NCBI GenBank assembly: GCA_019637585.1
Contig: JAHBVL010000002.1
Coordinates: 124,001 to 188,000, forward strand
Source: Thermomicrobiales bacterium
GTDB lineage: Bacteria; Chloroflexota; Chloroflexia; Thermomicrobiales; UBA6265
Reading direction: 5' to 3'
Length of the DNA stretch: 64,000 bases
Both the position numbers and the translations under genes were made by a program. Shown here piece after piece: positions 4,718 to 27,140 of the stretch (the first letter of the stretch is position 1; each line of letters opens with the position of its first letter). The notes below the pieces were generated by a model that did not search any database, was not told the origin of the DNA, and was given only the letters and a program-made list of their open reading frames with translations.

Positions 4718-4807
4718 CGGCGACATGTAAACGGGTGGCTCAGACGAAGACGACTGCCTGGCCACGCTCGGTCCGGCAATGCGAACGAAGTGAAAGCACA
4801 GGGGGCG

Positions 4808-5749
4808 ATGCACTTCTTTGCGCGACGGTTGGTTCAAACCGTTCCGGTTCTTTTATTCATCAGCGCGCTGACATTTGGACTGCTGCTGCTCTTGCCCGGA
4901 GATCCGGTGCTCGGGTTGCTCGGGCCTGGTGTCGATATCGACTCTCAGGCCGTTGATGATATGCGCGCCGAGCTGAATCTGGACAAACCGATCCCTGTGC
5001 AATACGCAACCTGGCTGGGCAACGTTCTGAAAGGCGACCTGGGCCGGTCTGCGGCCACCAAGCAGCCGGTGTCGGACGCGATTCTCTCGCGCTTGCCAGT
5101 GTCCGCATTCCTCACGCTCTACGCCGTGGCGATCATGCTCTTGATCGCACTGCCGCTCGGCATCCTCTCAGCAGTCAAGCACGGAACCGGGTGGGATCTC
5201 CTGGCCAGCGCCATCAGCGTTTTCGGTTTGGCGGTGCCCGGATTCTGGCTGGCGATCCTGATGATCATGTTTCTGGCCGTGCGCCTCGACTGGCTGCCGG
5301 CGTCCGGCTACGTGAGTCCGCGAGAGAGCCTGCCGGACAGTCTGCGCTACCTGCTGATGCCTGCCATCGCCATGGGCGCTGCAGGCGCCGGCACATTGAC
5401 GAGACAGCTGCGTTCGAGCCTTCTCGAGGTGATGCGGGACGACTACATCCGCACCGCGAGAGCCAAAGGTGTGCGCGGGCGCGCTGTTGTCTACCGCCAT
5501 GCGCTTCGCAATGCCCTGATTCCCTCGACAACGATGCTCGGTCTCATCGTCGGCCAGCTTATCGGTGGGTCTCTCATCATCGAGAGCATCTTCCTCGTTC
5601 CCGGTATGGGCAGCTTGCTCGTAACCGCCATCTTCACTCGTGACTTTCCCATCGTCCAGGCCGGAACCCTGGTCATCGCTGTCATCGTGGTGCTCATCAA
5701 CCTTGGAGTGGACGTGCTGTATGGCGTTCTTGACCCCCGGATCGACTAG
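4808..5749 (+). CDS. Opp/Dpp-type ABC permease, OppB/DppB-like
   Basis: First inner-membrane permease of a peptide/nickel-type importer, 314 residues. It starts with the family N-terminus (MHFFARRLVQTVPVLLFISALTF), has about six membrane segments and the BPD-transport (EAA-type) loop DDYIRTARAKGVRG near residues 211-224. ATG 4808 has AGGGGG only 2 nt upstream; a GTG at 4790 is the alternative. The next permease overlaps its 3' end by 29 nt. No ATP-binding subunit gene is adjacent. Confidence 0.9.
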   Translation: MHFFARRLVQTVPVLLFISALTFGLLLLLPGDPVLGLLGPGVDIDSQAVDDMRAELNLDKPIPVQYATWLGNVLKGDLGRSAATKQPVSDAILSRLPVSAFLTLYAVAIMLLIALPLGILSAVKHGTGWDLLASAISVFGLAVPGFWLAILMIMFLAVRLDWLPASGYVSPRESLPDSLRYLLMPAIAMGAAGAGTLTRQLRSSLLEVMRDDYIRTARAKGVRGRAVVYRHALRNALIPSTTMLGLIVGQLIGGSLIIESIFLVPGMGSLLVTAIFTRDFPIVQAGTLVIAVIVVLINLGVDVLYGVLDPRID

Positions 5750-6635
5750 TCACGTCCTGCCGCTGGTGCCCGGCGCGAGAAGTGGCCGCCAGGTCACGCG
5801 GCTGCACCATCTGACCCGGCAGGTGAGGAGGAGCCGTCAGGCCACGATTGGCCTGGCAATCGTGGGAACGATGACGCTGATCGCGCTCCTGGCGCCGGTT
5901 CTGGTGCGGTGGGATGTCGGAGTGCCCGTGCTCACCGACGCGCTCCTGTCGCCAAGCCGGGCCCATCCCATGGGAACGGACGAACTCGGGAGAGACGTGC
6001 TGGGACGACTCGTTCACGGCGCCAGGGTGTCCCTCAGCGTCGCCGCGCTCGCCGTTGGCGTCAGCGTGCTTGCCGGAGTGCCGCTCGGCATGGTGGCTGG
6101 ATTCTGGGAAGGGAAGATCGGAGCGGCGGTGATGCGGTTCACCGAAGCCATCCAGGCGTTTCCTGCCGTGTTGCTGGCCATCGCCATTGCGTCGGCGCTC
6201 GGACCTGGCATCGAGAACGCCATGATTGCGATCGGCGTGGTCGGCATTCCGGCTTATGCCCGATTGGCCCGTGCAGAAGTCCTCCGTCTCAAGTCCTCAG
6301 AGTTCGTGCACGCAGCTCGGGCCAGCGGCGCAGGGAGCGGGCGCATCCTCATTCGCCACGTCATGCCAAACGGGACCGCGCCGATCATCGTCGCCATCTC
6401 CACAGGAAGCGCGAGCGCCATCCTGACGGAAGCGGCACTCAGTTTTGTCGGGCTCGGCGCGACGCCACCGACACCGAGCTGGGGCAGCATGCTCCAGAAC
6501 GGCTATCAGTTCATCACCATCGCTCCATGGCTGGGGATCTTTCCCGGCATTGCCATTTCCGTAACGACCTTCGGTTTCATCTTCCTCGGTGACGGATTGC
6601 GGGACCTCTCGGATCCGCGGCTTCGAGGACGCTGA
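5721..6635 (+). CDS. Opp/Dpp-type ABC permease, OppC/DppC-like
   Basis: Second permease (304 residues) with the OppC N-terminal cytoplasmic segment, a first membrane helix (ATIGLAIVGTMTLIALLAPV), the family motif HPMGTDELGRDVLGRLVHG, and the coupling loop SSEFVHAARASGAGSGR. The start is ATG 5721, inside the 3' end of the upstream permease, which implies translational coupling. Any longer frame would only extend into that gene. It forms the membrane channel with the preceding protein. The binding protein follows after 116 nt. Confidence 0.9.
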   Translation: MAFLTPGSTSHVLPLVPGARSGRQVTRLHHLTRQVRRSRQATIGLAIVGTMTLIALLAPVLVRWDVGVPVLTDALLSPSRAHPMGTDELGRDVLGRLVHGARVSLSVAALAVGVSVLAGVPLGMVAGFWEGKIGAAVMRFTEAIQAFPAVLLAIAIASALGPGIENAMIAIGVVGIPAYARLARAEVLRLKSSEFVHAARASGAGSGRILIRHVMPNGTAPIIVAISTGSASAILTEAALSFVGLGATPPTPSWGSMLQNGYQFITIAPWLGIFPGIAISVTTFGFIFLGDGLRDLSDPRLRGR

Positions 6636-6751
6636 GGGCGACGCGTGTTCTGAAATGAGAGGAGGCGCCTATATCGCTCGGTGAAGATCCAAACGACTGC
6701 GGACTCGCGCGCTGATGCGCATCGTGAGTAGAAGCGACAGGAGAATTGGCA

Positions 6752-8359
6752 ATGCGTCAGGGGACAAATCAAGTAACGAGTGATGCGGCGGTCGTGGCGT
6801 TGTCCACGGGGAAGATTTCACGGCGCCAGCTGCTGACCATGACAGCCGCCGGCGTGACCGCTGCGACCCTGCCTGGGTTGAGCGCGTCGGCGCTTGCACT
6901 GCAGGAGGCTGGACAGCGCGGAGGATCGTTGCACGGCGCGGTTGCGCTGCCCGCGACGAGCATGGACCCCTACACCGCACGAGCAGCATCCGGAGACTTC
7001 ATCGTCTGGCGAGCGCTCTACAACAACCTCCTCGAGCTGGGCGAAACGGGTGATCCCATCCCCGAGCTCGCGACCGAATGGACAATCAGCGAGGATGGCC
7101 TGACCTATACCTTTTCGCTGCAGCCGGGCGTCACCTTCCACGATGGAACGGTTCTGGATGCGGCGGCGATCCAGGCCACGCTCGATCGCTACCGGGCGGA
7201 GGGATCGACATTCAGCGGCGCGGAGAAGCTTCGCGTCATCTCCGAGATCGATTCATCTGATCCGGGCACACTGGTTATCACCCTCTCGGCGGTCAACGCA
7301 CCCTTCCTGGCGACATTGGCCACCTGCCCAATCGTCTCTCCCACCGCTGTTGAGGAGATGGGCGAGGACCTGACGCTGCATGGCGTCGGCTCCGGTCCGT
7401 TCAAGTTCGAGTCCTGGGAGCCGAACGCGACTGCGGTCTTTTCTCGCAACGAGAACTACTGGGAACTGGCCGCGGATGGCGAGCCCTATCCGCTGCTCGA
7501 TGAGTTCGTGCTGGATGGCGTTCCCGACGACTCGGTACGCCTGCTCAACCTCCGAAGTGGACAGTTCCAGATCATCGACCGGATCAATCCTCGCGATCTC
7601 GCGTCCGTTTCGGGAGACCCCGACATTCAAACGGTGGAAACCCCGCATGCCACGCCGCATATCGTGGCCATGAATCCCAATCGGGCGCCGTTCGACAACC
7701 TGCTTCTCCGTCAGGCTGTTTCTCATGCCCTGGACCGGCAGGCGATCATCGACAACCTGAGCTTCGGAACCGGCTACACCACGACGTTGCCCTTCCCCAA
7801 GGATGCCTGGTTCTTTGTCGACGATCCGGCTCCTGTCTACGATGCTGACCGGGCCAAAGAACTCCTGGCCGAGGCTGGATTCTCCGACGGGATCGACGTC
7901 AAGCTGACCCACATCAATCGAACCGTCGATACGCAGCTTGCGCAGATTGTCAAAGCCCAGCTGGAAGCCGTTGGATTCCGCGTGGAGATCGAATCGCTGG
8001 AGCGCACCACCTGGGTCGACCTGTGGAAAGCCGGAGAGGGCGAGCTTGGTTTGCTGCAGGGATCGGCGCAACCAACCGATCCCGATGTGGAAGCTGGCAT
8101 TTTCCTGGCTGGCAGTTTCATCAATTGGACCGAGTACAACAACCCTGACGTTCAGGACTTGCTCGTGGCGGCCAATGCGGTGACCGGTCGCGAAGAGCGA
8201 CTCTCCATCTGGAAAGAGATTGCCGGACACGTAGTCGAGGACGCGGTCTACATCTACATCGGCAACACGCCTACGGTTGCCGGCATTCGCTCGAACGTCC
8301 ACGACGTTCAGTTTGTGAGCGGTCTGATCTGGGAGCTGACGCACGCCTCCATGAGCTAA
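6752..8359 (+). CDS. Tat-exported Opp/Dpp-type substrate-binding protein (SBP family 5)
   Basis: Extracytoplasmic solute-binding protein of the peptide/nickel importer family, 535 residues, normal for the family. The N-terminus carries a twin-arginine signal (ISRRQLLTMTAAG) ending near SALALQEAG. The mature protein shows family 5 hallmarks: ELATEWTISEDGLTYTFSLQ, VTFHDG, and RQAVSHALDRQAI. ATG 6752 has AGGAGA 7 nt upstream; a TTG at 6746 is less likely. It is last in the set, after both permeases. No ATPase gene follows; a hairpin at 8417-8441 ends the unit. Confidence 0.9.
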   Translation: MRQGTNQVTSDAAVVALSTGKISRRQLLTMTAAGVTAATLPGLSASALALQEAGQRGGSLHGAVALPATSMDPYTARAASGDFIVWRALYNNLLELGETGDPIPELATEWTISEDGLTYTFSLQPGVTFHDGTVLDAAAIQATLDRYRAEGSTFSGAEKLRVISEIDSSDPGTLVITLSAVNAPFLATLATCPIVSPTAVEEMGEDLTLHGVGSGPFKFESWEPNATAVFSRNENYWELAADGEPYPLLDEFVLDGVPDDSVRLLNLRSGQFQIIDRINPRDLASVSGDPDIQTVETPHATPHIVAMNPNRAPFDNLLLRQAVSHALDRQAIIDNLSFGTGYTTTLPFPKDAWFFVDDPAPVYDADRAKELLAEAGFSDGIDVKLTHINRTVDTQLAQIVKAQLEAVGFRVEIESLERTTWVDLWKAGEGELGLLQGSAQPTDPDVEAGIFLAGSFINWTEYNNPDVQDLLVAANAVTGREERLSIWKEIAGHVVEDAVYIYIGNTPTVAGIRSNVHDVQFVSGLIWELTHASMS

Positions 8360-8416
8360 CCAAGCGGCTCACGGGTCTCGGAACACTGCGAAGCTCGAGG
8401 AGAAGCGCAAAGTGCG

Positions 8417-8441
8417 GGCCCGGCGTCATTGACGCCGGGCC
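8417..8441. terminator. Perfect 12-bp-arm hairpin between convergent genes
   Basis: GGCCCGGCGTCA and its exact complement are separated by one T. It lies between the binding-protein gene (+) and the DUF4239-like gene (-). No T-run follows, so it may be a terminator or an mRNA 3'-end protector. Confidence 0.55.
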
Positions 8442-8463
8442 ACCTCCACGCCTCCGCTTCGCC

Positions 8464-9243
8464 TTACTCTGCGTTCATCGATGCCTGTAAGTCGGTCAAT
8501 GGCCTTTGTGACACCGGCAAGTACCCACGCTGCGGGGCATCCAGAGCCGCGATCATCATCACCACGAGCGAAAAAGACAAGGCGAGCACGAGCATCATCC
8601 ACGTACGCCGCGATGCGGCGTTCGCCGTTTGATAGCCAACCGCAAACATACCGAACAGCACAAGAAGATAGAGCGCCATCCACAACCCGGAGGGCATCCT
8701 GGCCTGGCCGGCAACGGCGACTCGTTCAGCCAGAACGTTCATCATCCCGTTGATCGACTCGACATACATCGCGGCGATGTCGGAGTTGTCGCCATTGCGG
8801 ACATTTTCGACCGCCATGTCCCAGAGTTGTTGCTGCGTGACCAGCAAGTCGGCAATCGAACTTTCCAGATTGTCGAAGTTGCTCGGATCGCCCGCTGCAA
8901 GGACCTGGTCGATGTAGTCTAGATACAGTGATTTGGCCTCGGCGCGCTGGGATTCGGGCAGGAAATCCGACCGGAGATACGCGGTGCGAATTGACGCCGC
9001 CTGTTCGCGAACCAACACTTTTCGGGCGTCGTATCGATCGGAAACCGTGCCAAAGGTGAATGCAAGCATGAATGCCAACAACGCCAGAACCGATCCGACG
9101 ATGGCGCCGACCGGTGCTTCCTTCTCGTCTTCGCTGCGCCGTCTGGTCGTCCAACCGACCCGGTAGCCGAGTTCGATCGCTCCCATAACCAGTAGCGCGG
9201 TCAAGATGAAGAGCAGCCATAGAGGGATGTCCTGCACGGTCAC
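8464..9243 (-). CDS. DUF4239-like (bestrophin-like) membrane protein
   Basis: A 259-residue membrane protein with two N-terminal helices (about 8-26 and 47-66), a soluble helical segment of about 110 residues, and two C-terminal helices (about 183-202 and 214-235). The segment LALLAFMLAFTFGTVSDRYDARKVLV and the Arg-rich stretch after helix 1 resemble DUF4239 proteins, which are distantly bestrophin-like. GTG start at 9243 with AAGGAG 8 nt upstream. Function is unknown. It is a single gene, convergent with the upstream transporter set. Confidence 0.7.
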   Translation of the reverse strand: MTVQDIPLWLLFILTALLVMGAIELGYRVGWTTRRRSEDEKEAPVGAIVGSVLALLAFMLAFTFGTVSDRYDARKVLVREQAASIRTAYLRSDFLPESQRAEAKSLYLDYIDQVLAAGDPSNFDNLESSIADLLVTQQQLWDMAVENVRNGDNSDIAAMYVESINGMMNVLAERVAVAGQARMPSGLWMALYLLVLFGMFAVGYQTANAASRRTWMMLVLALSFSLVVMMIAALDAPQRGYLPVSQRPLTDLQASMNAE

Positions 9244-9508
9244 GCACTTGACTCCTTAGGGACGTGCATTGGGGGGAAACTCCGGCACCGATCGTGTCAA
9301 CGAGTCCGCAGAATCACTTGGCCCGGGCTCCCTGTGCCGCATGATTCATTAGCGACACGGGATTTTATCCGGATTGGCTGTTGTCGGCCAATGAGACTCG
9401 TGGGACCGCGTTCTGTTTCTGGCCGCTGGCCGCTTCTCAGACATTGGAAAGAACGACGGAGCAACTGGCTGGTCCGCAATCCAAACTGAAACGGCATGCT
9501 CGCTGTTT
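9244..9508. other. Intergenic stretch between the DUF4239-like gene and the second permease set
   Basis: 265 nt with no supportable gene. It must hold the promoter of the DUF4239-like gene and the 3' end of the permease operon. No clear terminator or repeat was seen. Confidence 0.5.
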
Positions 9509-10414
9509 TCAGCGGCTCTCACTAACAGACCGCACGTCCAGTGCATCGCGCAGACCGTCGCCAAAGAGATTGAGGGCGAGCACGGTGGTGACGATAGCCA
9601 GCCCGGGAAAGACACTGATCCACCATGCCTGCCGAATGAAGTCTCGGCCCTCGTTGAGAGCCAGACCCCAGGTTGGGGTCGATGGGTTGACTCCCAGACC
9701 CAGGTAAGTGAGTGTCGATTCAGTCAGGATGCCGAGTCCGACGGCGAAAGTGAACTGCACGATGATCGGCGCCACCATGTTCGGCAGAAGATGCCTGGAG
9801 AGGATGCGCCGGTCACGGGCGCCGATCGCCCGGGCGGCCAGGGAGAAATCCTGTTCCCGTAGCGAGAGGACCTCGGCCCGGATGATTCTGGCGAAGTCGT
9901 CGATGTATGCCACCGCGATCGCCACGACAACATTGCGAAAGCCTGCGCCAAAGAATGCCACCATCCCGACCGCGAGAACGATGACGGGAAAGGACCAAAG
10001 CAGCTCGACAAATCGCATGATGACCGAATCGATCTTTCCTCCATAGAAACCGGCAATCATGCCGGCCAATCCGCCAATGGCCAGTGCCAGCAGTGCCGCC
10101 AGCAGGCCCACGCTGAACGAAACGCGGGTGCCGATCAGCACGCGGCTGAACAAGTCCCGGCCGTAGGAGTCGGTGCCCATTGGGTGGCGCCAGGATGGCT
10201 CCATGAGCAACCCAAAATCGTTGTCGTCGGGGCCATATGGCGAAATCCAGGGACCAATAATCGCCAGAATGGCGAACGCCCCGAGCAGAACGAGTCCAAT
10301 GAGCACCTTGCGTTCGCTCCGGAGTCTGGTCCAGAAGCGGCTGCGCGATCGGGGCGGTTGCAGGTCCCCCGCCGCCAGCGTCTGGATATCAGCGGCGATC
10401 GATGCGTCACGCAT
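9509..10414 (-). CDS. Opp/Dpp-type ABC permease, OppC-like (second set)
   Basis: Permease of 301 residues with the OppC layout: a cytoplasmic N-terminus, a first helix (VLIGLVLLGAFAILAIIG), the motif HPMGTDSYGRDLFSRVLIGT, and the coupling loop REQDFSLAARAIGARDRR. Its start overlaps the end of the upstream permease by 8 nt. It is last in a minus-strand binding protein, OppB, OppC order and is distinct in sequence from the 5721-6635 permease, so the sets are not a recent duplication. No ATPase is encoded nearby. Confidence 0.9.
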   Translation of the reverse strand: MRDASIAADIQTLAAGDLQPPRSRSRFWTRLRSERKVLIGLVLLGAFAILAIIGPWISPYGPDDNDFGLLMEPSWRHPMGTDSYGRDLFSRVLIGTRVSFSVGLLAALLALAIGGLAGMIAGFYGGKIDSVIMRFVELLWSFPVIVLAVGMVAFFGAGFRNVVVAIAVAYIDDFARIIRAEVLSLREQDFSLAARAIGARDRRILSRHLLPNMVAPIIVQFTFAVGLGILTESTLTYLGLGVNPSTPTWGLALNEGRDFIRQAWWISVFPGLAIVTTVLALNLFGDGLRDALDVRSVSESR

Positions 10415-11354
10415 AGCGGATTCTTGGATCGATTGCCGTGTAGAGGATGTCGACGGCCAGATTGGCCAGCACGAAAATCACGGCAATGAGCAGCACGATC
10501 CCCTGAACCATGGGGTAATCTCGATCGAAAATGGCGCCGATCAGAATTCGGCCAATCCCCCGGATCGAGAAGACCATTTCAACCGCGACGGTACCGCTGA
10601 GCAGGAGCGCCAGCTGAATGCCCATCACTGTCACGACAGGGATAAGGGCATTGCGCATGGCATGCCGGGCAATGACGCCCGGTTCGGCAACCCCTTTGGC
10701 TCGAGCGGTTCGAATGTAGTCGCTGCTCATTGTCTCCAGAAGGCCCGCACGAACGAATCGCATGAGAATGGCCGCGTAGGCGGTGCCGATTGCGATTCCC
10801 GGCAGAATCAGGCGTTCGATCCAGGCGCGGAACCCGTCGTCACGCAGCTCGGCGTAGCCCAGAGCCGGAAACCAGCCGAGGTTCACGGAAAAGACAATGA
10901 TCAGGAGAATGCCGAGCCAGAATCCCGGCATGCTCACGCCGATGAAGGCAATCAGGCTGGCGAGATAGTCGATCCATGTGTTGCGCTTGAGCGCGGCCAG
11001 GATACCCGTGGGCAATGCAATCCCGACCCCGATGATGAACGCCACCAGCGAGAGACTGAGCGTTTTCGGCAACCCGGTGCGAATGGCATCGACGACCGTT
11101 TCGTTCGTAGCAATCGAGCTTCCCATATCGCCGCGCAGCAGATCGCCCATCCACTTGACATACTGGCTGCCGATCGATTCGTCGAGCCCCAGTTTCTGGC
11201 GCATGGCGTCGGCGGCCTCGGGTGTGTATTCGGGCCCCAGCATTTGCACGACGGGATCGCCCGGAACGAGCCGGATCGCGAAAAAGACAAGCGTGGCCAC
11301 GCCCCAGATGAGGAACGCCGAGTGAATCAACCGCCGAATGAGGTATCGGGCCAC
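10407..11354 (-). CDS. Opp/Dpp-type ABC permease, OppB-like (second set)
   Basis: Permease of 315 residues beginning MARYLIRRLIHSAFLIWGV, with the OppB periplasmic segment after helix 1 (PGDPVVQMLGPEYTPEAAD), six predicted helices and the cytoplasmic loop SSDYIRTARAKGVAEPG. It lies between the binding-protein gene and the OppC partner, with an 8-nt overlap to the latter. It probably forms the heteromeric channel of a dipeptide, oligopeptide or nickel-type importer. Confidence 0.9.
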   Translation of the reverse strand: MARYLIRRLIHSAFLIWGVATLVFFAIRLVPGDPVVQMLGPEYTPEAADAMRQKLGLDESIGSQYVKWMGDLLRGDMGSSIATNETVVDAIRTGLPKTLSLSLVAFIIGVGIALPTGILAALKRNTWIDYLASLIAFIGVSMPGFWLGILLIIVFSVNLGWFPALGYAELRDDGFRAWIERLILPGIAIGTAYAAILMRFVRAGLLETMSSDYIRTARAKGVAEPGVIARHAMRNALIPVVTVMGIQLALLLSGTVAVEMVFSIRGIGRILIGAIFDRDYPMVQGIVLLIAVIFVLANLAVDILYTAIDPRIRYA

Positions 11355-11387
11355 CGTCGAGGCTTCCTGCTAGCGCCGCCGTTGCAC

Positions 11388-11421
11388 GTGGGAGTCTCTG
11401 GAGTTGCCGAGAGACCCCCAC
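11388..11421 (-). terminator. Intra-operon hairpin between binding protein and permease genes
   Basis: 12-nt arms with one mismatch (GTGGGaGTCTCT and AGAGACcCCCAC) around a 10-nt loop, downstream of the binding-protein stop and before the permease start. Such hairpins often keep binding-protein mRNA more abundant than permease mRNA; that role is inferred. Confidence 0.45.
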
Positions 11422-11439
11422 CGCACAGGCGATTATCGA

Positions 11440-13065
11440 CTACCGGTCGAGCCAGACTTTTTCGTAGTAGCGCTGCTCCGGAATCCCCACGACTCCCTGA
11501 ACGTCCGCGTGATGCGCGAACAGATCGAAGACATGGTAGACGAACGCGGCCGCAACGTCAGTTTGCAGCACGACCTGGAGCTCCTGGAAGAGCCTGGCTC
11601 GCTCGGCCTGATCTGACGTGGCCCGCGTTGCTTCGAGGAGTGCGTCGGCATCGGCGCTGTTGTAGCCATAGGTATTCCAGGGACCAGTGGAGTGGAAGAT
11701 GTTCCAGTGGCCGTCGTCAGGATCGGCATCGACCACGCTGCCATGCAGGAAGAGATCGAAGTCGCCCGACTGCCACCGCTCGTTGAACGTCGCCGCCTGC
11801 TGGAAATCGACCTGAGGATCCAGACCGATTTCGGTCAACGCCGTGCGCAGTACCTCAGTCGGCCGCTGGCCGATTTCTTCGGACGAGATGATCACGGGCT
11901 GCACGCCAACGATTCCCGCTTCTTCGGCGAGGGCTTTCGCTTCGTCGAGGTTGTAGCCCTGCGGGTTCTCCACAGTCGCCGGATCGACATACGCCCAACC
12001 GAAGGCCGGAGCGATGGCGCCGATACCGGGCGTGGCCAGACCGAAGAAGGCGGTGTCGACGAACGCCTGCCGGTCGATCGCTTTCGATACCGCCATGCGG
12101 GCCACCGGATTGTCCCAGGGAGGCCGGGCGTAGTTCATCACCACGCCTCGCCACATCGTGCTTGGTTGCTGGAGGACAACGAGGTCGGAATTGGAATTCA
12201 GCTGTTCGAAAGAGGTAGCGGGCACGGGGTCGATGGCGTCGAGATCGCCGGCCTCCAGACCGCTCACGGCGCTGGAGGGTTCCGGGACGAGCCGTACCTC
12301 GATCGTGTCGAGATAAGGCCGTCCGCCGTACCAGCCATCGAACGCGACCATGTCGAATCCCTGGCCCACGTCGTAGGTCTCCGGGACGATCATGAACGGT
12401 CCAGAGCCGACTGGCGTCATGCCGAACTGCTCGTCGCCCATTTCCTCGATTGCCCGGGCGGAAACGGGCGTCAGCGCCCGGCCAGGTCCTCGCGTGCAGG
12501 CCACAGCCAGGAAGGGAGCGAATGGGTCGCTGAGCGTGAGGGTGACAGTGCGCTCATCCGGCGTCTGGAAATCGGTGACCGACGCCAGCTTGTTGGCATG
12601 CGGGGAAGCGAAATCTGGATTCGTCGTGCGGTCGAAGGTGTACTGGAAATCGGCGGACGTGATCGCGTCGCCATTGTGGAAGGTGATGCCTTCCCGCAGG
12701 GTGAAGCTATAGCTGAGTCCATCCTCGGAAACCGTCCAATCCTCCGCAAGATCGGGAATGATGCCGAGGTCGGTGTCGAATTGCACCAGACTGCTATGCA
12801 GACTGGGGAGAATCGAACCGGCGACGACGCCCTGCGCCAGCAGTCCGGGATCGAGGGTGACGATCTGGCTGTTCAGAAAACCGAGCCGGAGCGTTCCGCC
12901 GGTCACTGGCTCCTGCAGCGCCGAAGCGGCGCTTGCTTTCGGCGATGCCTGGAGACTCGCGGCAAACGCCGCAGCTCCGGTGCCCATCGCGAGCTTCATC
13001 AATGTCCGGCGAGACACATAGGGACCGCTCAATACACTCCAGTCGATCGGATGACGGGACTCCAT
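11440..13065 (-). CDS. Tat-exported Opp/Dpp-type substrate-binding protein (second set)
   Basis: Family 5 solute-binding protein of 541 residues. A twin-arginine signal (VSRRTLMKLAMGTGAAAFA) is followed by the mature domain with DLAEDWTVSEDGLSYSFTLREG, ITFHNGDAI and VARMAVSKAIDRQAF. ATG 13065 is favoured over a much longer upstream frame because AAGGAGGAG sits 4 nt before it and the signal peptide starts there. It is the first gene of the second importer set. The substrate is unknown. Confidence 0.9.
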   Translation of the reverse strand: MESRHPIDWSVLSGPYVSRRTLMKLAMGTGAAAFAASLQASPKASAASALQEPVTGGTLRLGFLNSQIVTLDPGLLAQGVVAGSILPSLHSSLVQFDTDLGIIPDLAEDWTVSEDGLSYSFTLREGITFHNGDAITSADFQYTFDRTTNPDFASPHANKLASVTDFQTPDERTVTLTLSDPFAPFLAVACTRGPGRALTPVSARAIEEMGDEQFGMTPVGSGPFMIVPETYDVGQGFDMVAFDGWYGGRPYLDTIEVRLVPEPSSAVSGLEAGDLDAIDPVPATSFEQLNSNSDLVVLQQPSTMWRGVVMNYARPPWDNPVARMAVSKAIDRQAFVDTAFFGLATPGIGAIAPAFGWAYVDPATVENPQGYNLDEAKALAEEAGIVGVQPVIISSEEIGQRPTEVLRTALTEIGLDPQVDFQQAATFNERWQSGDFDLFLHGSVVDADPDDGHWNIFHSTGPWNTYGYNSADADALLEATRATSDQAERARLFQELQVVLQTDVAAAFVYHVFDLFAHHADVQGVVGIPEQRYYEKVWLDR

Positions 13066-13271
13066 GTTTCTCCTCCTTGGTGTAACTGAGAACTGGAGAA
13101 CGACCAGTGCAGCGTTCGTCAGAACCTGATGAATGCTATTCGTGCTGGCGTTCTGGTAGCCGGATCGACGGGATCCTCTCGTCAGACAAAAGGACCGGCC
13201 GATTCGGCATTCTAGCAAGCCATGGAAGAACCTCGCTTGCCTGGAGGCGCGGCTTGGACTGGCAGCCATTG

Positions 13272-14666
13272 TCAAAGAGGAACCAACTGCTCCTCGGTGG
13301 GCTCTGCTCAGCAGTACCATGGTTCGCTGAGCTGTGGGACGGCGGGATAACCGAATCCTTCGCGCAATTTGGGTCGCGATCCCGACGTGCCAGTCAATCT
13401 GGTGGCTGTGCGCCAGATGCGCTCGCAGGTTTCGCGACGTGGCGCTTCTCGTTGCTGGTCTTCCTGGATGATCGTCAGAACGCTCTGGTGCAACTCGTCC
13501 ATGCGAGGATCGGGATGGTTCCATGGATAGACGAGCGCGAAGGGATCAAAGGGTTCGATGACTGCCTGGGTTTCCGGCAGTTCGAGCAAGCGGGAGCCCG
13601 ACGGAATCAGCAACCTGATGCCGTACTGAATGGGGGAGACGTTCTCGATCAGATCGAGGTTGGCGAGCGTTTCCAGCAGCTCGACATATCCCTCGGCGGT
13701 CGTCCAGGGCGTGAAGGTGACGAAGGTGGGATTGAGCGGCAGACCAAGCTGCCGGGTCGACTGAACGACCAGCTCGAATTCCTCGCGGGTGTGGCGTTTG
13801 TCGAGAATCTCCAGGACTCGCTCGTCGATCGATTCGACGGCCGAGGTGATCATGGCGCAGCCGGTGTCGCGCAGTACCGGCAACAGCTCTTGCTGGCGCA
13901 CCAGGTGTTCGACTTTGATGGTCACGTCGTAGGAGAGCGTGGGCCAGCGGTCGTGCAGCGCCTCGACGATGCGACGGGCGTGTCCGGGGCCATTGAAGAA
14001 ATCCGGATCGCCGAAGGTGATGTGTTCCGCTCCGGCCGCCACTTGCTGCTCGATATCGGCGAGCACGACATCGGCGCTGATGGCGAAGAAGCGTCCGCCG
14101 TAGACCGGCACCACCGGGCAATGGCGGCAGAGGTGCTTGCAGCCGCGCGTCGTTTCGGTATAGCCGGTGATGCGCCGTCTGCCGTCTGCTGTGGTGATGT
14201 ACGCGTACTGGGGGAGTCCCGGCAATCCGTGACGATCGGGTACCCGGAACTGGAGCCGGTCCAGGGAAAGCGGGGCATCACGTTGCGGAGCCGTGGGATC
14301 GTCGCGCAGGCGGTTGAGCATGGCGACCAGACCCGGCTCGAATTCGCCGCCCAGCACCGTGCCGGCGCCGATCGAACGGAAGAGGGGTTCATTGACCGCG
14401 GCATAGAGACCGAAAAAGCAGAGATGCGCATCGGGATTCACCTCGCGCACCCGTTGGGCCATGCGCAGCGCAATGCGCGTTGCGGTATGCATCGGCACGG
14501 AGAAGCAGACGACATCCGCCCATTTGATGGTGCCGGCATCGAGTTTCTGGATGGCCAGATCGAGGCAGCGGACGTTGGCTCCCGCACCGGTCAGCCAGGC
14601 AGCGGCTGAACCAACGGCGAACGACTGCCGGCCAAGCTCGTAGGTTGAAACGATCGCTACGTTCAT
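13272..14666 (-). CDS. Radical SAM selenoprotein with C-terminal Cys-Sec-Ala-Glu-Pro tail
   Basis: A 464-residue radical SAM enzyme if the in-frame TGA at 13308-13310 (codon 453) is read as selenocysteine. An N-terminal cobalamin-binding-like region (1-120) precedes the [4Fe-4S] motif C176-KHL-C180-RH-C183 in ETTRGCKHLCRHCP, and a TIM-barrel core with FGDPDFFNG and SAVESIDERVLEILDKRHT. The codons around the TGA are TGC TGA GCA GAG CCC, giving C-U-A-E-P, followed by TEEQLVPL and a TGA stop at 13272. A SECIS-like hairpin follows the recoded codon. I recall a family named for a CUAEP/CCAEP tail; this matches it exactly. ATG 14666 gives the family-like start MNVAIVSTYELGRQSF but has a weak ribosome site. 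It is divergent from a DsrE-like gene. The substrate is unknown. Confidence 0.88.
13277..13295 (-). promoter_or_regulatory. Bacterial SECIS-like hairpin
   Basis: Twelve nt after the TGA, GAGGAGC pairs with GGTTCCTC-type bases (7 pairs including one G-U) around the loop AGTTG. The apical loop starts 19 nt after the TGA and shows GU, as needed for SelB recognition in known bacterial SECIS elements. Confidence 0.7.
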
Positions 14667-14796
14667 GAAGCGATGGTAGCCCCTTCTCGCCGTTCGTGCC
14701 GCTCGTGGGAGAATGAGGGGACTCCCGGAATGGGTCCGGTCGAGTCGTGCCCGGGGTTCACGGGTCTGGTTCATAACGAAGAAGGGAAGCATCTCT

Positions 14797-15174
14797 GTGA
14801 AAGTCGCCTATGTGTTCACCACCTCCGGACATACAGCCAGCTACAAGCTGGGCAAAATGATTCTGCCTCAGCTGGAGAGCGGCACCCATGGTGTCGAGGT
14901 CGTGGGAATGATGTTTTTCGACGACAACACCTTCATTCTGCGCAAGGGCGATCCGATGGGCGAGCGACTGGCCAAAGTGGCCAAGGAGCAGGGCATTCTG
15001 CTGATGATGTGCGACCAATGTGCGCTCGAGCGCGGTCTGGCGGAAGGGGAGTTCGGCACGGTGCCGAGTCAGTGCGTGGCGACCGGCACGGTCGAGGGCG
15101 TGGCCGTGGGCTGCTTCCCCGATCTCTATGGTGCGCTCGCCGGCAACCCGCCGGATCACGTCATTTCGCTGTAG
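14797..15174 (+). CDS. DsrE-like small protein, probable partner of the selenoprotein (SaoD-like)
   Basis: A 125-residue DsrE/DsrF-fold-like protein (KVAYVFTTSGHTASYKLGKM) with four cysteines: a C72-DQ-C75 pair in LLMMCDQCALERGL, C93 and C106. DsrE relatives carry sulfur or other chalcogens on cysteine. GTG start at 14797 with AAGGGAAG at good spacing. It is divergent from the radical SAM selenoprotein with 130 nt between starts, so shared control is likely. I recall a DsrE-related family called SaoD linked to CUAEP-tail selenoproteins and believe this is a member, but could not check. A pairing in selenium or sulfur transfer is inference. Confidence 0.75.
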   Translation: MKVAYVFTTSGHTASYKLGKMILPQLESGTHGVEVVGMMFFDDNTFILRKGDPMGERLAKVAKEQGILLMMCDQCALERGLAEGEFGTVPSQCVATGTVEGVAVGCFPDLYGALAGNPPDHVISL

Positions 15175-15177
15175 CGG

Positions 15178-15268
15178 AAACCAGCCCCGTACGGGCAAAG
15201 GGCAAAGGGCAAAGGCAGCGGAAGCCAGCCCGTACGGGCACCCCACTGTGGTCCCACTGTGGGTGCCC
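15178..15268 (+). repeat. Heptamer repeat, two 12-bp palindromes and terminator-like hairpin
   Basis: After the DsrE-like gene come GCCCCGTACGGGC, three GGGCAAA heptamers (15193-15213), a second GCCCGTACGGGC palindrome (15228-15239), and a hairpin GGGCACCC/GGGTGCCC at 15236-15268. The last may terminate both convergent units. Confidence 0.6.
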
Positions 15269-15317
15269 TGCTCATTCACAGCGATGGCGATCGGGAGCCG
15301 ACGTGCGCGGCACGGCG

Positions 15318-16532
15318 CTATTCAGCGACCCAGGAGAATTCGCCGGATTGGATCGTGCCGATCGCGGCGAGGGATAGTCCCGATTCCTGCAATGTGGCGT
15401 GCTCGGTGGCGCTGACGATCACCTGGGCTCCCAGGTCGCCGATCGAGGCGCTGAGCTGCGCGCGGTGGTTCCGGTCGAGCTCGGAGTAGACGTCGTCGAG
15501 GAGTACGATCGGTTGATCGCCTCCCTCGGCGAACATCAGGTCGGCCTCGGCCAGTTTCAGCGCAACCGCTGCGAGGCGTTGCTGTCCCCGCGAGCCGAAG
15601 GTGCCGATGTCGATGCCCTCGACCTGGACGGTCAGATCGTCGCGGTGGGGGCCGATCAGGGTGACGCTCCGCTTGAATTCAAGACCCCGAACGTGCTTCA
15701 GCTGCTCGGCCATGGCGAAGGCCGCCCCGGATTCTCCATCGCGGGCCGATCGGATGAACTGGGAGATCCGGGTCTCGTCGGGCGTCGGGCTGCCAAGCGA
15801 CGGTTGATAGCTGGTGGTCATCGAGTCGATGCCGGTGAACGCCGCAAAACGGTCTCGCGCGAAACGGTCCAGGTCGTCGATTGCCTTCACTCGCCGGTGG
15901 ATGATGCGCGCGCCGTGAGCAATCAATTCGTTGTCCCAGTAGTCGAGCTCGGTACGGACGGCTGGGTCCTGCCAGGACATTCCCTCCCGAACCAGACGCT
16001 TGATCAGGCTGTTTCGCTGCTCGACGATTCGCCCGTAGCGGGAGAGTGCAGTCAGATAGCCGTGGTCGACCTGGGAGAGCATCACATCGAGGAATCGCCG
16101 CCGCTGTCCGGGTGACCCGGCGATCAGATCAATATCCTGAGGTTCGAAGAGAACGCACTTGAGCGCGCCAACGACCCGGCCGGCCGTGGTTCGTTTTCCG
16201 TCCAGCGACACAACTTTACGAACCCTCGTGCTGTGGAGTGGTTCGGCCTGGAAGCCGATCTCGATCGTTCTCGTGCCGCGTATCGAAGAGAATGTTCCCT
16301 CCACGCGAGCGTATGGGGCCACCTGCAAATCCTCGCCACTCTTCCAGTTGAGGAGTTCGCGCTCGACACCGGCTCGCGTGGAGCGGGTTGTGGCCAGCAG
16401 GATGATGGCTTCGAAAATGGTGGATTTGCCGGCGGCATTGGCTCCGACCAGACCGAATCCTTCGGGAGGAATGGCAAGGTCGAGCGACCGGACCGAACGA
16501 AACTCGGACAGGTTCAGGTGGGTCAGATACAT
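15318..16532 (-). CDS. recF: RecF, DNA replication and repair ATPase
   Basis: SMC-like ATPase that loads RecA at gapped DNA with RecO and RecR; 404 residues, slightly longer than usual. It begins with the RecF signature (MYLTHLNLSEFRSVRSLDLAI), Walker A GANAAGKST near residues 33-41, the RecF motif LIAGSPGQRRRFLDVMLSQ, the ABC-type signature FGSRGQQRLAAVALKLAE, and Walker B QPIVLLDDVYSELD. It lies 33 nt downstream of dnaN, the usual dnaN-recF order, although dnaA and gyrB are not alongside. The ribosome site is weak, so coupling to dnaN is possible. Confidence 0.96.
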   Translation of the reverse strand: MYLTHLNLSEFRSVRSLDLAIPPEGFGLVGANAAGKSTIFEAIILLATTRSTRAGVERELLNWKSGEDLQVAPYARVEGTFSSIRGTRTIEIGFQAEPLHSTRVRKVVSLDGKRTTAGRVVGALKCVLFEPQDIDLIAGSPGQRRRFLDVMLSQVDHGYLTALSRYGRIVEQRNSLIKRLVREGMSWQDPAVRTELDYWDNELIAHGARIIHRRVKAIDDLDRFARDRFAAFTGIDSMTTSYQPSLGSPTPDETRISQFIRSARDGESGAAFAMAEQLKHVRGLEFKRSVTLIGPHRDDLTVQVEGIDIGTFGSRGQQRLAAVALKLAEADLMFAEGGDQPIVLLDDVYSELDRNHRAQLSASIGDLGAQVIVSATEHATLQESGLSLAAIGTIQSGEFSWVAE

Positions 16533-24526: not shown

Positions 24527-26890
24527 CTACTGACAGATACAAATTGTCTGGCCGCTGGAGACCAGGCAGTTGCGAATGCAGGTCTCCGGCGGGCCCGGGC
24601 AAGTGTGGCAAATTCCGTCGTTGCATACGATTTGGTCGTTGATGCTGCAATGGAATCCCGACCCATCTTCGCAGCAGGTCTGAGAGAGATTGCCAATGTC
24701 CGGGCATGGATTTGGGCAAGGCCCTCCGCATCCATTGTTCGTGGCGCCGCCACACTTCCCAGCGCAGTTGGGCTGGCAAACGCACTGCCCCGTTGAATTG
24801 CAGATGCCTCCGGGACAAGAGACGCCATTTGTCACTTGACAGGCCGCTGTCATTCCATCGCAGAACGTGCATGCGGGATCCCAATCCGGGTGGAACACCG
24901 GACAGTTCTCTACGGTGCCGTTGCACTCGCTGCACTCGTTTGTTACTGGGTTGATCACAAAGGGCGCCGGGCACTCACAGTCGCCGTTCACGCAGATCGC
25001 CTGTCCAAAACAGGTCACACCCTGACACGGGTCGGGACAGGTGGAGCCAGTCTTGCACTCGACGCCCCCGGTGGAGTCGGGACAGCAGACCTCGCCATCC
25101 TCGCATTCCTCGTAGGAGTCGATGTCGCAGACACACGTGTCTGCGAGACAGGTCTCGTTCGCTGCGCACCGTGACTGGTTCTCGATGGAACAAGCACCTG
25201 ATGCAGCGCAATCGGCGCAACCGCGAGCGCAGCAGGTGTCGCTCTTCGTGCAATCAAATCCGCAATAGGCTCCCTCGTCAGAATCCCAGCAGGTGTAGCA
25301 GGCGCCATATTGCGCGCAGTCGCCGTTGGGATCAGTTCGGTTGGCGACCGCTTCACAAACCGGTTCTGTCTGTCCAGAGACGCATTGATAGCAGTCACCG
25401 CACGGCGGATCGCAAACGGGTGGAGGTGGTGTTGTTGGTTCAGATGTCGTTCCGGTCGTGGTGGTCGTTGTCGTAGTGGTCGTTGTTGTGGTCGTTGTCG
25501 TCACCAGGGTATTGACGAAGGTCCACTCCGTGTCGGACGGAACGACCACGGTGAGCACGCCACCACCGGTCACCTCATACTCATCCGGCACCGTCGACTC
25601 GACGACGCAGTAGATGCCTGCTTCCAGCCCGGTGAAGACGGTTTGTCCCGTGACCTCATCGACGCACTGCTCGCTCCGCACCGGATCGCCAAAGGCGGGA
25701 CAGACCCCGCCATAGAGGGTGAAGCAGGCGCCTGCCAGCGGCATGTTGCTTTCGTCGACTTTGGAGACGGTGAAATCACTGGTCGGCGCACAGGTGCTCG
25801 TTTCGGGATCGCAATAGAGCCCGCTCCCGCACCCACAGTCGATCAGCCCAAAACAGGTGTCCGACACCGACCCGCACGGATCCCCCTCACCGCCGAATCC
25901 CTCATCCGCACAGGTGAGCGGCGTGCAGCAGAAGGGTTCCACAGGAATGCCGACCTCGCCATCCGCCGCCGCGATCGCGCAGACATCACCCTGCGCGCAA
26001 CAAATCTGACTGCAACAGACCTGCCCGGTTCCGGAACAGGAGGAGGTGTCGACAGCTCCGATGCAGGCGCCGTTCAGACAGCTCCAGCAGGCGACATCGG
26101 TTCCCGGCGCATTGCCGGCACAGACCGTCACCTCATCGACACAGGCGCTGGCATACGGATTAGTGGTGTCGCAGACGCTGCACTCCCCTGAGCAACTGGT
26201 GTCATCGCAACAGGCGCCGGCGGCGATGCAGATCGCCACGCCGTCCCGCACGCAACACTGCTCGTTGGCGGCGCAGCATGCGGCATTGTCCGGACCCTGG
26301 CAGACATGCCGGTCTGCCGGGCAGCATTCCCGCTCGAAATACCACTCAGGGATCGGGAACCAGCCATTGATGACGAGGGGATATCCGGGGAAATAGCATT
26401 CCCCATTGCAACACCCACCATCGCAGGTGAGCTCGACCGGACAGCACATCTCCTCTGGCTGTCCCGCAAAGACCTGATCGAGGCAGACCGCGCCAGCACC
26501 GCAGCACTCCCGGTCGCAGCACTGCTGGGCATCGGCACAGCATTCGAGACCGCAGACCGCCCGGCCGCGACCCGCCTGGCCATCGCAGCAGATAGCGTGG
26601 TTGCCCGAGCGGGCGCAGGCGCCAGCCGGACAGCAGAGCGTGCTGTTCGGGCACTGGTCCTGTCCAGGTTGGCAGAGGGGTGGGGCAGGAGTGGTGCTGG
26701 TGGTGGTTGCCGGTTCTGGCGGTGGAGGAATGGTCGGCCGGGTTCGGGCGTCGCGGGCGTCGACCGAGTCGCCGATCGCGGCGCCGGACGCAACCGCGCC
26801 GCCGATGCCGAGCAATCCTTTCAGGATCGAACGGCGGGATACGCCCTGCGCGACGAGCTTCGTCAAGCCGTCGAAACGACTTCCATCCAT
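24527..26890 (-). CDS. Large Cys-rich Tat-exported protein with SpaA/Cna-B-like domain and poly-Thr linker
   Basis: 787 residues. A twin-arginine signal (GVSRRSILKGLLGIGGA) leads to a P/T-rich linker and then long runs of Cys-rich modules (CC pairs, CxxC, CCxxxxC; more than 100 Cys). Near residues 395-470 is a prealbumin-like SpaA/Cna-B-type domain (FTVSKVDESNMPLAGACFTLYGG ... FTGLEAGIYCVVE), followed by a run of about 16 Thr and another Cys-rich half. There is no LPXTG motif or C-terminal membrane helix. ATG 26890 has GAGGGGG 8 nt upstream and starts just before the Tat motif. Probably a disulfide- or metal-stabilised surface protein; its function is unknown. Confidence 0.8.
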   Translation of the reverse strand: MDGSRFDGLTKLVAQGVSRRSILKGLLGIGGAVASGAAIGDSVDARDARTRPTIPPPPEPATTTSTTPAPPLCQPGQDQCPNSTLCCPAGACARSGNHAICCDGQAGRGRAVCGLECCADAQQCCDRECCGAGAVCLDQVFAGQPEEMCCPVELTCDGGCCNGECYFPGYPLVINGWFPIPEWYFERECCPADRHVCQGPDNAACCAANEQCCVRDGVAICIAAGACCDDTSCSGECSVCDTTNPYASACVDEVTVCAGNAPGTDVACWSCLNGACIGAVDTSSCSGTGQVCCSQICCAQGDVCAIAAADGEVGIPVEPFCCTPLTCADEGFGGEGDPCGSVSDTCFGLIDCGCGSGLYCDPETSTCAPTSDFTVSKVDESNMPLAGACFTLYGGVCPAFGDPVRSEQCVDEVTGQTVFTGLEAGIYCVVESTVPDEYEVTGGGVLTVVVPSDTEWTFVNTLVTTTTTTTTTTTTTTTTGTTSEPTTPPPPVCDPPCGDCYQCVSGQTEPVCEAVANRTDPNGDCAQYGACYTCWDSDEGAYCGFDCTKSDTCCARGCADCAASGACSIENQSRCAANETCLADTCVCDIDSYEECEDGEVCCPDSTGGVECKTGSTCPDPCQGVTCFGQAICVNGDCECPAPFVINPVTNECSECNGTVENCPVFHPDWDPACTFCDGMTAACQVTNGVSCPGGICNSTGQCVCQPNCAGKCGGATNNGCGGPCPNPCPDIGNLSQTCCEDGSGFHCSINDQIVCNDGICHTCPGPPETCIRNCLVSSGQTICICQ

Positions 26891-27140
26891 GCGACACCCC
26901 CTCGGACGGATTGGCGGGCAACCGATCCGCCGGTATGTTTCTCCTCTGCTGTTCTCTGAAGAGTATAGAACCTCGCTCAATGGATTCGGTGCGACCGACG
27001 GCCGCGATTGGCAGACCTCTTATCAGTGCTGGCGCGGGGCGGTCATTCGGGAGCGCATCGTCTATACTTTCCGTTGGCCATTTCGCTCAGGCGATTGGCA
27101 ACGCACGGTCACGTAGATGGACCGTTGTACCTTAACAACC
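26891..27140. other. Intergenic stretch before the RNase P RNA gene
   Basis: 250 nt between divergent units. It must contain promoters for the Cys-rich gene and rnpB. TATACT-like -10 candidates occur on both strands (26962-26967 minus, 27063-27068 plus), but neither has a convincing -35. Confidence 0.4.

What the first reader, a model, noticed from the sequence alone, without database searches (positions are those of the whole stretch)
14667..15174. Selenoprotein divergently paired with a four-cysteine DsrE-like protein
The DsrE-like protein has a CxxC pair and two further Cys and shares a 130-nt intergenic region with the selenoprotein. DsrE relatives relay persulfide sulfur. The pair may form an undescribed chalcogen-transfer or modification step. 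I recall larger loci of this type with ABC transporter and thioredoxin-like members; here only two genes occur, beside an Opp-type importer.
Basis: inference. Interest (0 to 1): 0.75.

Follow-up and report, generated by a model that had tools for sequence, protein, structure and literature searches.

The report
Radical SAM selenoprotein and thiol-carrier pair
Two neighbouring bacterial genes, a selenium-containing radical enzyme and a small cysteine-rich carrier-like protein, recur side by side in unrelated bacteria, which suggests that they work together, perhaps to handle or attach carbon to a toxic or scarce metal-like element, a step nobody has yet demonstrated.

Summary
A minus-strand radical SAM gene (14666 to 13272) reads through UGA at 13308-13310 into the tail CUAEP (NF040546, 621.8 bits, cut-off 500). 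Across a 130-nt gap lies a 125-aa DsrE-fold protein (NF040913 "SaoD/DsrE family", 206 bits, cut-off 152). Sec insertion is well supported: a 7-bp stem-loop after UGA, tRNA-Sec and SelB in the genome. In Chloroflexota draws 51 genomes carry both families and only this one has them adjacent. Among 80 DsrE loci drawn from all species, 9 directly abut a CUAEP gene and 3 more lie within 4.4 kb (Streptomyces, Actinopolyspora, Solirubrobacterales, Kouleothrix, Methylocapsa). In an Actinomycetota draw, 4 of 9 genomes with both have them within 62 nt. So the pairing is real. The chalcogen-relay reading is not proven. DsrE genes otherwise sit in zur-znuABC and CobW loci, one CUAEP-DsrE operon holds an ArsP/SaoE-type permease, and CUAEP's nearest relative is ArsL, the C-As bond enzyme. 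I favour thiophilic metal(loid) handling or organo-element formation. Both families are already named; the novelty is the module and its metal context.

The parts
13272..14666 (-). CUAEP-tail radical SAM selenoprotein gene, 464 residues including Sec; stop TGA 13272-13274
   Evidence: translation with TGA=U; NF040546 621.8 bits, cut-off 500; CxxxCxxC motif C176-C180-C183 invariant in 11 sequences
13308..13310 (-). UGA codon read as selenocysteine (residue 453), second half of the Cys-Sec pair
   Evidence: aligns with Cys in 36 Cys-form relatives and with the second Cys of the ArsL RCCLKC tail
13277..13295 (-). SECIS-like stem-loop: 7-bp stem, 5-nt loop AGUUG, starting 13 nt after UGA
   Evidence: 7 of 7 pairs here; mean 5.9 of 7 in 89 distinct UGA forms against 3.1 in 36 Cys forms; no Rfam hit
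14667..14796 (.). 130-nt divergent intergenic region
   Evidence: no sigma-70-type promoter match and no Fur/Zur-type palindrome found in it
14797..15174 (+). SaoD/DsrE family protein gene, 125 aa, GTG start
   Evidence: NF040913 206.4 bits (cut-off 152), SaoD NF040732 120.3 (cut-off 169, not met); PF02635 26.5 (cut-off 22.7); model pLDDT 94.3, DsrE/TusD fold
11440..13065 (-). downstream Opp-type substrate-binding protein gene (ATG read at 13065), 206 nt after the selenoprotein stop; not a conserved partner

Best explanation
The two proteins form a working pair that handles a thiophilic element, most likely a metal or metalloid. SHOWN: the families, the Sec codon and its stem-loop, recurrent adjacency in several phyla, the DsrE fold with three invariant cysteines, the alignment of C72 with the persulfide cysteine of TusD, the alignment of the CU pair with the CC pair of the ArsL tail, and the zinc-gene context of DsrE relatives elsewhere. 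INFERRED: the DsrE-like protein binds the element (metal ion, metalloid, or a sulfur/selenium-bound form of it) on C72-x-x-C75 plus C106 and hands it to the C-terminal Cys-Sec pair of the radical SAM protein. That tail presents it to the [4Fe-4S]/SAM centre, where a SAM-derived radical, possibly the 3-amino-3-carboxypropyl radical as proposed for ArsL, forms a carbon-element bond. The product is then exported or sequestered, or built into a small metabolite by the ATP-grasp ligase and formyltransferase found beside CUAEP in many genomes.
For: Pairing: of 80 DsrE loci fetched by DsrE similarity alone, 12 (L266 and L281 share one MAG) have CUAEP in view: 9 directly adjacent and 3 at 1.35-4.35 kb. 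By start codons the tandem gap in Streptomyces luteolifulvus is about 22 nt. In the Actinomycetota draw of 396 genomes DsrE is over cut-off in 18, CUAEP in 20, both in 9, and 4 of those 9 lie within 62 nt. With the centre genome dropped that is 3 of 8, chance about 1e-10 under a simple model of a 3-Mb genome. Co-occurrence: 33 both, 59 CUAEP only, 10 DsrE only, 298 neither in 400 genomes of the window's phylum; CUAEP over cut-off in 33 of 49 genomes chosen for DsrE. Metal side: zinc-type neighbours at 19 of 40 DsrE loci and 16 of 80, 0 of 52 CUAEP loci. Thermomicrobium roseum has repressor, metal SBP, ATPase, permease, SaoD/DsrE in a row; Thermus has AztC-like, AztD-like and ZigA-like neighbours. 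The Actinopolyspora operon is CUAEP, PLP decarboxylase, ArsP_1/SaoE-like permease, DsrE, with an ArsR/SmtB gene near. Chemistry side: next-best family for CUAEP is ArsL, 285.6 bits against 43 for the third, and the tails align at the CC/CU pair. ArsL's ACP transfer to As(III): PMC8552651 (abstract and passages seen).
Against: In the window's own phylum the genes are almost never adjacent (1 of 51 genomes with both). In this window no zinc, arsenic or efflux gene was recognised beside the pair (genes named). The ArsP/SaoE-type permease stands in one CUAEP-DsrE locus and one zinc-type DsrE locus only (L288, L093), scoring below the SaoE cut-off in both. The DsrE-like protein is an orphan in many genomes. 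Haloarchaeal DsrE relatives sit by YeeE/YedE and rhodanese genes, which favours sulfur. CUAEP fails the ArsL cut-off (285.6 of 450), so its chemistry cannot simply be carried over. No Zur-type site was found upstream of DsrE here. I know of no biochemistry for either family.
Confidence: 0.4

Rival explanations
1. Sulfur or selenium relay: the DsrE-like protein carries persulfide or selenide on C72 and passes it to the CU tail, and the radical SAM protein inserts or transfers the chalcogen.
For: DsrE/TusD fold (Z 11.4 to 2d1p_A and 2hy5_A); C72 aligns with TusD Cys78, the persulfide site in DsrE (PMC3397948, abstract and passages seen); haloarchaeal relatives beside YeeE/YedE and rhodanese genes.
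Against: The hhalign match to TusD is weak (probability 1.5%, E 0.034), so the residue match rests on fold plus a short motif. Three invariant cysteines and zinc-uptake neighbours are not features of Tus/Dsr relays as I know them. No DsrF/DsrH/TusE-type partner was noticed in the maps drawn, but none was searched for.
Confidence: 0.22
2. Zinc-starvation partnership: the DsrE-like protein is a zinc-responsive thiol protein or zinc chaperone; its pairing with CUAEP reflects shared need (for example a zinc-poor or metallophore response), not direct transfer between the two.
For: Fur-type regulator, znuA, znuC, znuB, DsrE in one direction in several genera and in T. roseum; CobW-DsrE pairs; AztC/AztD/ZigA-like genes in Thermus; CUAEP clusters hold ATP-grasp/LAL_C2 (19 of 52) and formyltransferase (18 of 52) genes, as a small-molecule pathway might.
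Against: No zinc-type gene at 52 CUAEP loci; the regulator is called Zur only by context; no Zur-type site in the window's intergenic region.
Confidence: 0.25
3. In this genome the adjacency is accidental: two separately useful genes that came to lie head to head.
For: 1 adjacent of 51 genomes with both in the draws from the window's phylum and relatives; head-to-head order is not the order seen in the 12 other linked loci.
Against: Chance of one adjacency in 51 is about 0.7% under a simple model, and the same two families abut in other phyla.
Confidence: 0.13

Closest known systems
NCBIfam NF040546 rSAM_CUAEP (CUAEP/CCAEP-tail radical SAM (seleno)protein)
   Same: Full-length match above cut-off; same CU tail; UGA and Cys forms both implied by the family name.
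   Different: Nothing at family level: this is a member. The family name assigns no function.
NCBIfam NF040913 SaoD/DsrE family; [quoted passage not shown]
   Same: Member of NF040913; second-best is SaoD.
   Different: Below the SaoD cut-off; SaoT not found in this genome; no Sao ABC set beside the pair.
ArsL (NF040542), arsinothricin biosynthesis radical SAM enzyme
   Same: Closest named relative (285.6 bits; 30-33% identity over 85-87% of the protein in 16 plasmid records); C-terminal vicinal CC aligned with CU.
   Different: Below ArsL cut-off; no arsQ or arsM recognised beside CUAEP; tail motif differs (CUAEP against RCCLKC).
DsrE/TusD sulfur-relay proteins
   Same: Fold (Z 11.4, rmsd 2.9-3.4) and the position of the active-site cysteine.
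   Different: 18-20% identity; CxxC plus a third invariant Cys; zinc-gene context; no relay partner noticed beside it.

Membership tests
NF040546 CUAEP/CCAEP-tail radical SAM | HMM score at or above 500 bits over full length | tested here: met
   621.8 bits, profile 1-466 of 468 (Sec entered as Cys)
NF040546 CUAEP/CCAEP-tail radical SAM | C-terminal C[UC]AEP tail after radical SAM domain with CxxxCxxC | tested here: met
Bacterial selenoprotein | in-frame UGA at a Cys position with conserved downstream stem-loop and Sec machinery in the genome | tested here: met
   single-sequence fold not significant
NF040913 SaoD/DsrE family | HMM score at or above 152 bits | tested here: met
   206.4 bits
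SaoD (NF040732) | HMM score at or above 169 bits | tested here: not met
   120.3 bits
SAO system | set of Sao genes (SaoT tested only) | tested here: inconclusive
   SaoT NF040730 has no match at E 0.001 in this 96.6% complete genome; other Sao families not searched genome-wide
ArsL (NF040542) | HMM score at or above 450 bits | tested here: not met
   285.6 bits
ArsL (NF040542) | ACP transfer from SAM to As(III) | not testable with these tools
   needs enzyme assay
DsrE/DsrF-like (PF02635) | Pfam gathering score and fold | tested here: met
   26.5 bits, cut-off 22.7; fold
DsrEFH/TusBCD sulfur relay | persulfide-carrying Cys at DsrE/TusD position 78 | tested here: inconclusive
   C72 aligns with TusD C78 in a weak hhalign match; persulfide not testable here
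DsrEFH/TusBCD sulfur relay | hetero-oligomer with DsrF/DsrH or TusB/TusC | not tested
   no such neighbour noticed in the drawn maps, but no search was run

The most novel reading that the evidence does not exclude
CUAEP and SaoD/DsrE form an undescribed two-protein organo-element module, distinct from SAO and from ArsL: a zinc-linked thiol carrier loads a thiophilic element onto the Cys-Sec tail of a radical SAM selenoenzyme, which bonds it to carbon, and in many genomes an ATP-grasp ligase and formyltransferase turn the product into an unknown metabolite.
Probability: 0.25. Interest if true: 0.85.

Novelty: new variant of a known kind. Interest (0 to 1): 0.58.

Why it matters
If the pair works together, a widely spread but functionally blank selenoprotein family gains a partner and a testable substrate class. 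It would link selenium use, zinc homeostasis genes and organometal or organo-arsenic chemistry, and it points to named organisms (Thermomicrobium roseum, Streptomyces luteolifulvus, Actinopolyspora xinjiangensis) in which a two-gene deletion could be assayed.

Tried and rejected
Rejected on the way: after I judged the pair accidental, because 50 of 51 genomes with both have them apart. The cross-phylum scan and the Actinomycetota draw overturned that.

Led nowhere: Rfam on 12500-16500 (no match at E 5); a Fur/Zur-type palindrome scan of the window (9 matches against 9.6 expected, none in the gap); promoter/terminator scan; eye search of upstream regions of Fur-family genes (one, L093, shows a perfect Fur-type palindrome); PDB sequence searches (no relatives); SelB as a discriminator of Sec and Cys forms (no difference); paper searches for SaoT/SaoD, CUAEP/CCAEP, SAO phrases, Zur regulon with DsrE. 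The papers most likely to describe these families (Haft and Gwadz 2023, Haft and Tolstoy 2025) are not held, so I cannot say that the pairing is unpublished.

Dropped or biased rows: the 80 DsrE loci are the best of 397 relatives found. Some of them are genomes already seen through the genome search (for example L224, L226, L247, L300), so counts of the sets overlap. The 49 genomes come from 50 of the 80 loci, chosen by me with 11 of the 12 CUAEP-linked loci among them (the twelfth, L281, is the same MAG as L266). The Actinomycetota centre was chosen because it has the pair. HMMs used for neighbours were built from clusters of the window's phylum and will miss distant zinc genes. Fisher tests are not corrected for phylogeny. 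For one search I chose 63 genomes of the CUAEP-positive ones by form. One search used a wrong frame for the DsrE protein; one search replaces it.

Full report
What is there. On the minus strand a radical SAM gene starts at ATG 14666 and, with TGA read as selenocysteine, runs through 13308-13310 to a TGA at 13272-13274, ending PWYC-U-AEPTEEQLVPL. It scores 621.8 bits on NCBIfam NF040546, rSAM_CUAEP (cut-off 500); the next family is ArsL at 285.6 (cut-off 450), the third at 43 bits. On the plus strand, 130 nt away, a 125-aa protein starts at GTG 14797. It scores 206.4 on NF040913, SaoD/DsrE family (cut-off 152), 120.3 on SaoD itself (cut-off 169), and 26.5 on Pfam DsrE (cut-off 22.7).

Is it a selenoprotein? 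Among collected copies of the tail there are 90 with UGA and 36 with Cys at the same place. In 89 distinct UGA forms a 7-bp stem at fixed distance (13-19 with 25-31 nt after UGA) keeps 5.9 pairs on average, with several different standard pairs at most stem positions, against 3.1 in Cys forms and 2.2 to 3.9 when slid. The window has all seven pairs around the loop AGUUG. The genome has tRNA-Sec and SelB. Against: the window's stem-loop alone is not unusually stable, and SelB is as common in Cys-form genomes, 30 of 32, as in UGA-form ones, 29 of 31. I take the Sec reading as secure on comparative grounds.

Is the pair real? First in the phylum of the window: in 400 genomes CUAEP is over cut-off in 92 and DsrE in 43, both in 33. 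Adding 81 relatives, 51 genomes have both. Only the window's genome has them adjacent; in 15 they share a contig at 15.8 kb to 7.9 Mb and in 35 they lie on different contigs. Taken alone this says accident. Then a scan of one genome per species with the DsrE alignment only gave 80 loci; 12 hold CUAEP. Nine abut it: L249 Kouleothrix aurantiaca and L284 Streptomyces luteolifulvus in tandem; L264, L266, L273, L275, L280, L281 and L287, MAGs titled as actinobacterial groups, tail to tail with open frames that nearly touch or overlap. Three lie 1.35 to 4.35 kb away: L261 Methylocapsa MAG with one gene between, L288 Actinopolyspora xinjiangensis with two between, L293 Goekera deserti. An Actinomycetota draw of 396 genomes gives DsrE 18, CUAEP 20, both 9, and 4 of the 9 within 62 nt; without the centre genome 3 of 8. 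Of 49 genomes chosen for DsrE, 33 have CUAEP over cut-off. Three gene orders (tandem, convergent, and here divergent) in separate lineages argue for a shared function rather than one inherited block.

What else keeps company. DsrE relatives: the order Fur-type regulator, ZnuA, ATPase, ZnuB, DsrE, all one way, stands at 7 loci (L089, L090, L091, L094, L095, L104, L201), with partial or varied forms at L093, L186, L190, L192 and L202; Pfam names. Zinc-type genes stand at 19 of 40 such loci and at 16 of the 80 species loci, and at 0 of 52 CUAEP loci; the two DsrE sets overlap. Named cases: Thermomicrobium roseum; Thermus oshimai and T. brockianus with ZnuA/AztC-like, AztD-like (about 131 bits, below its cut-off of 400) and ZigA-like CobW neighbours. 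Thermus thermophilus HB27 shows no zinc gene beside it, and haloarchaea differ: YeeE/YedE and rhodanese. CUAEP relatives: ATP-grasp with LAL_C2 at 19 of 52, formyltransferase 18, YggX-like 10, NifU-type 9, DUF169 7; in the window's own family these are not beside CUAEP. Locus L274 joins the two worlds: DsrE, ATP-grasp, YggX and formyltransferase in a row, with CUAEP elsewhere in that genome (G472). In L288 the order is CUAEP, PLP decarboxylase, a permease of ArsP_1 type (130 bits) with NCBIfam matches to the SO_0444 Cu/Zn efflux family (83.8) and SaoE (57.6), both below cut-off, then DsrE; an ArsR/SmtB gene is near. A SaoE-like permease (51.9 bits) also lies in the zinc-type locus L093.

How it may work. 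The DsrE model is confident (pLDDT 94.3) and matches DsrE and TusD (Z 11.4 each, rmsd 3.4 and 2.9; Foldseek E 7.8e-6 and 7.5e-5). C72 aligns with TusD Cys78 (weak score), the position that carries persulfide in DsrE (PMC3397948, abstract and passages). C72, C75, C106 and H31 are invariant in 47 and in 45 sequences. Such a set could bind a metal as well as a persulfide. The radical SAM model (pLDDT 88.2) is closest to AprD4 and then to cobalamin-type enzymes. The tail after residue 430 is poorly predicted, so I make no claim where it docks. CU aligns with CC of the ArsL tail (one ArsL sequence, from Pseudomonas amygdali). [quoted passage not shown] Hence the proposal: carrier (DsrE-like), acceptor tail (Cys-Sec), radical bond formation. 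Only the anatomy and the company are shown; element, transfer and product are inferred.

Against known kinds. Both proteins are members of named families. The pair is not the SAO system as such (below the SaoD cut-off; SaoT without a match) and CUAEP is not ArsL by its cut-off. The review PMC13188914 (passages) lists SAO families, says that Sec in SaoB and SaoC may be a metal ligand, and gives the two primary papers, which are not held; whether they mention this pairing I could not check. I therefore rate it a new variant of a known kind.

Noticed in passing
window 4790-13065: Two Opp-type transporter gene sets face each other (convergent), their substrate-binding proteins about 30% identical; two permeases score just under the Opp2B 'nickel' cut-off (318.7 and 340.1 of 350).
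   Followed up: partly
L089, L090, L094, L095, L104, L203 and others: SaoD/DsrE family gene as the last gene of a Fur-family regulator and znuABC-type operon: a possible zinc-linked role for a family named after sulfur proteins.
   Followed up: partly
L288:2233-6363: Actinopolyspora xinjiangensis gene row CUAEP (Cys form), PLP decarboxylase, ArsP_1/SaoE-like permease, SaoD/DsrE: looks like a small organo-element pathway.
   Followed up: partly
L069-L088, L109-L120: CUAEP genes beside ATP-grasp/LAL_C2 ligase, formyltransferase, YggX-like and DUF169 genes, suggesting a widespread uncharacterised small-molecule pathway in the window's phylum.
   Followed up: partly
L204:3766-6402: In Thermus thermophilus HB27 the SaoD/DsrE gene is divergent from the argonaute gene on pTT27.
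   Followed up: no
window 24527-26980: Open reading frame of 817 aa on the minus strand, very rich in cysteine, with a long threonine run.
   Followed up: no
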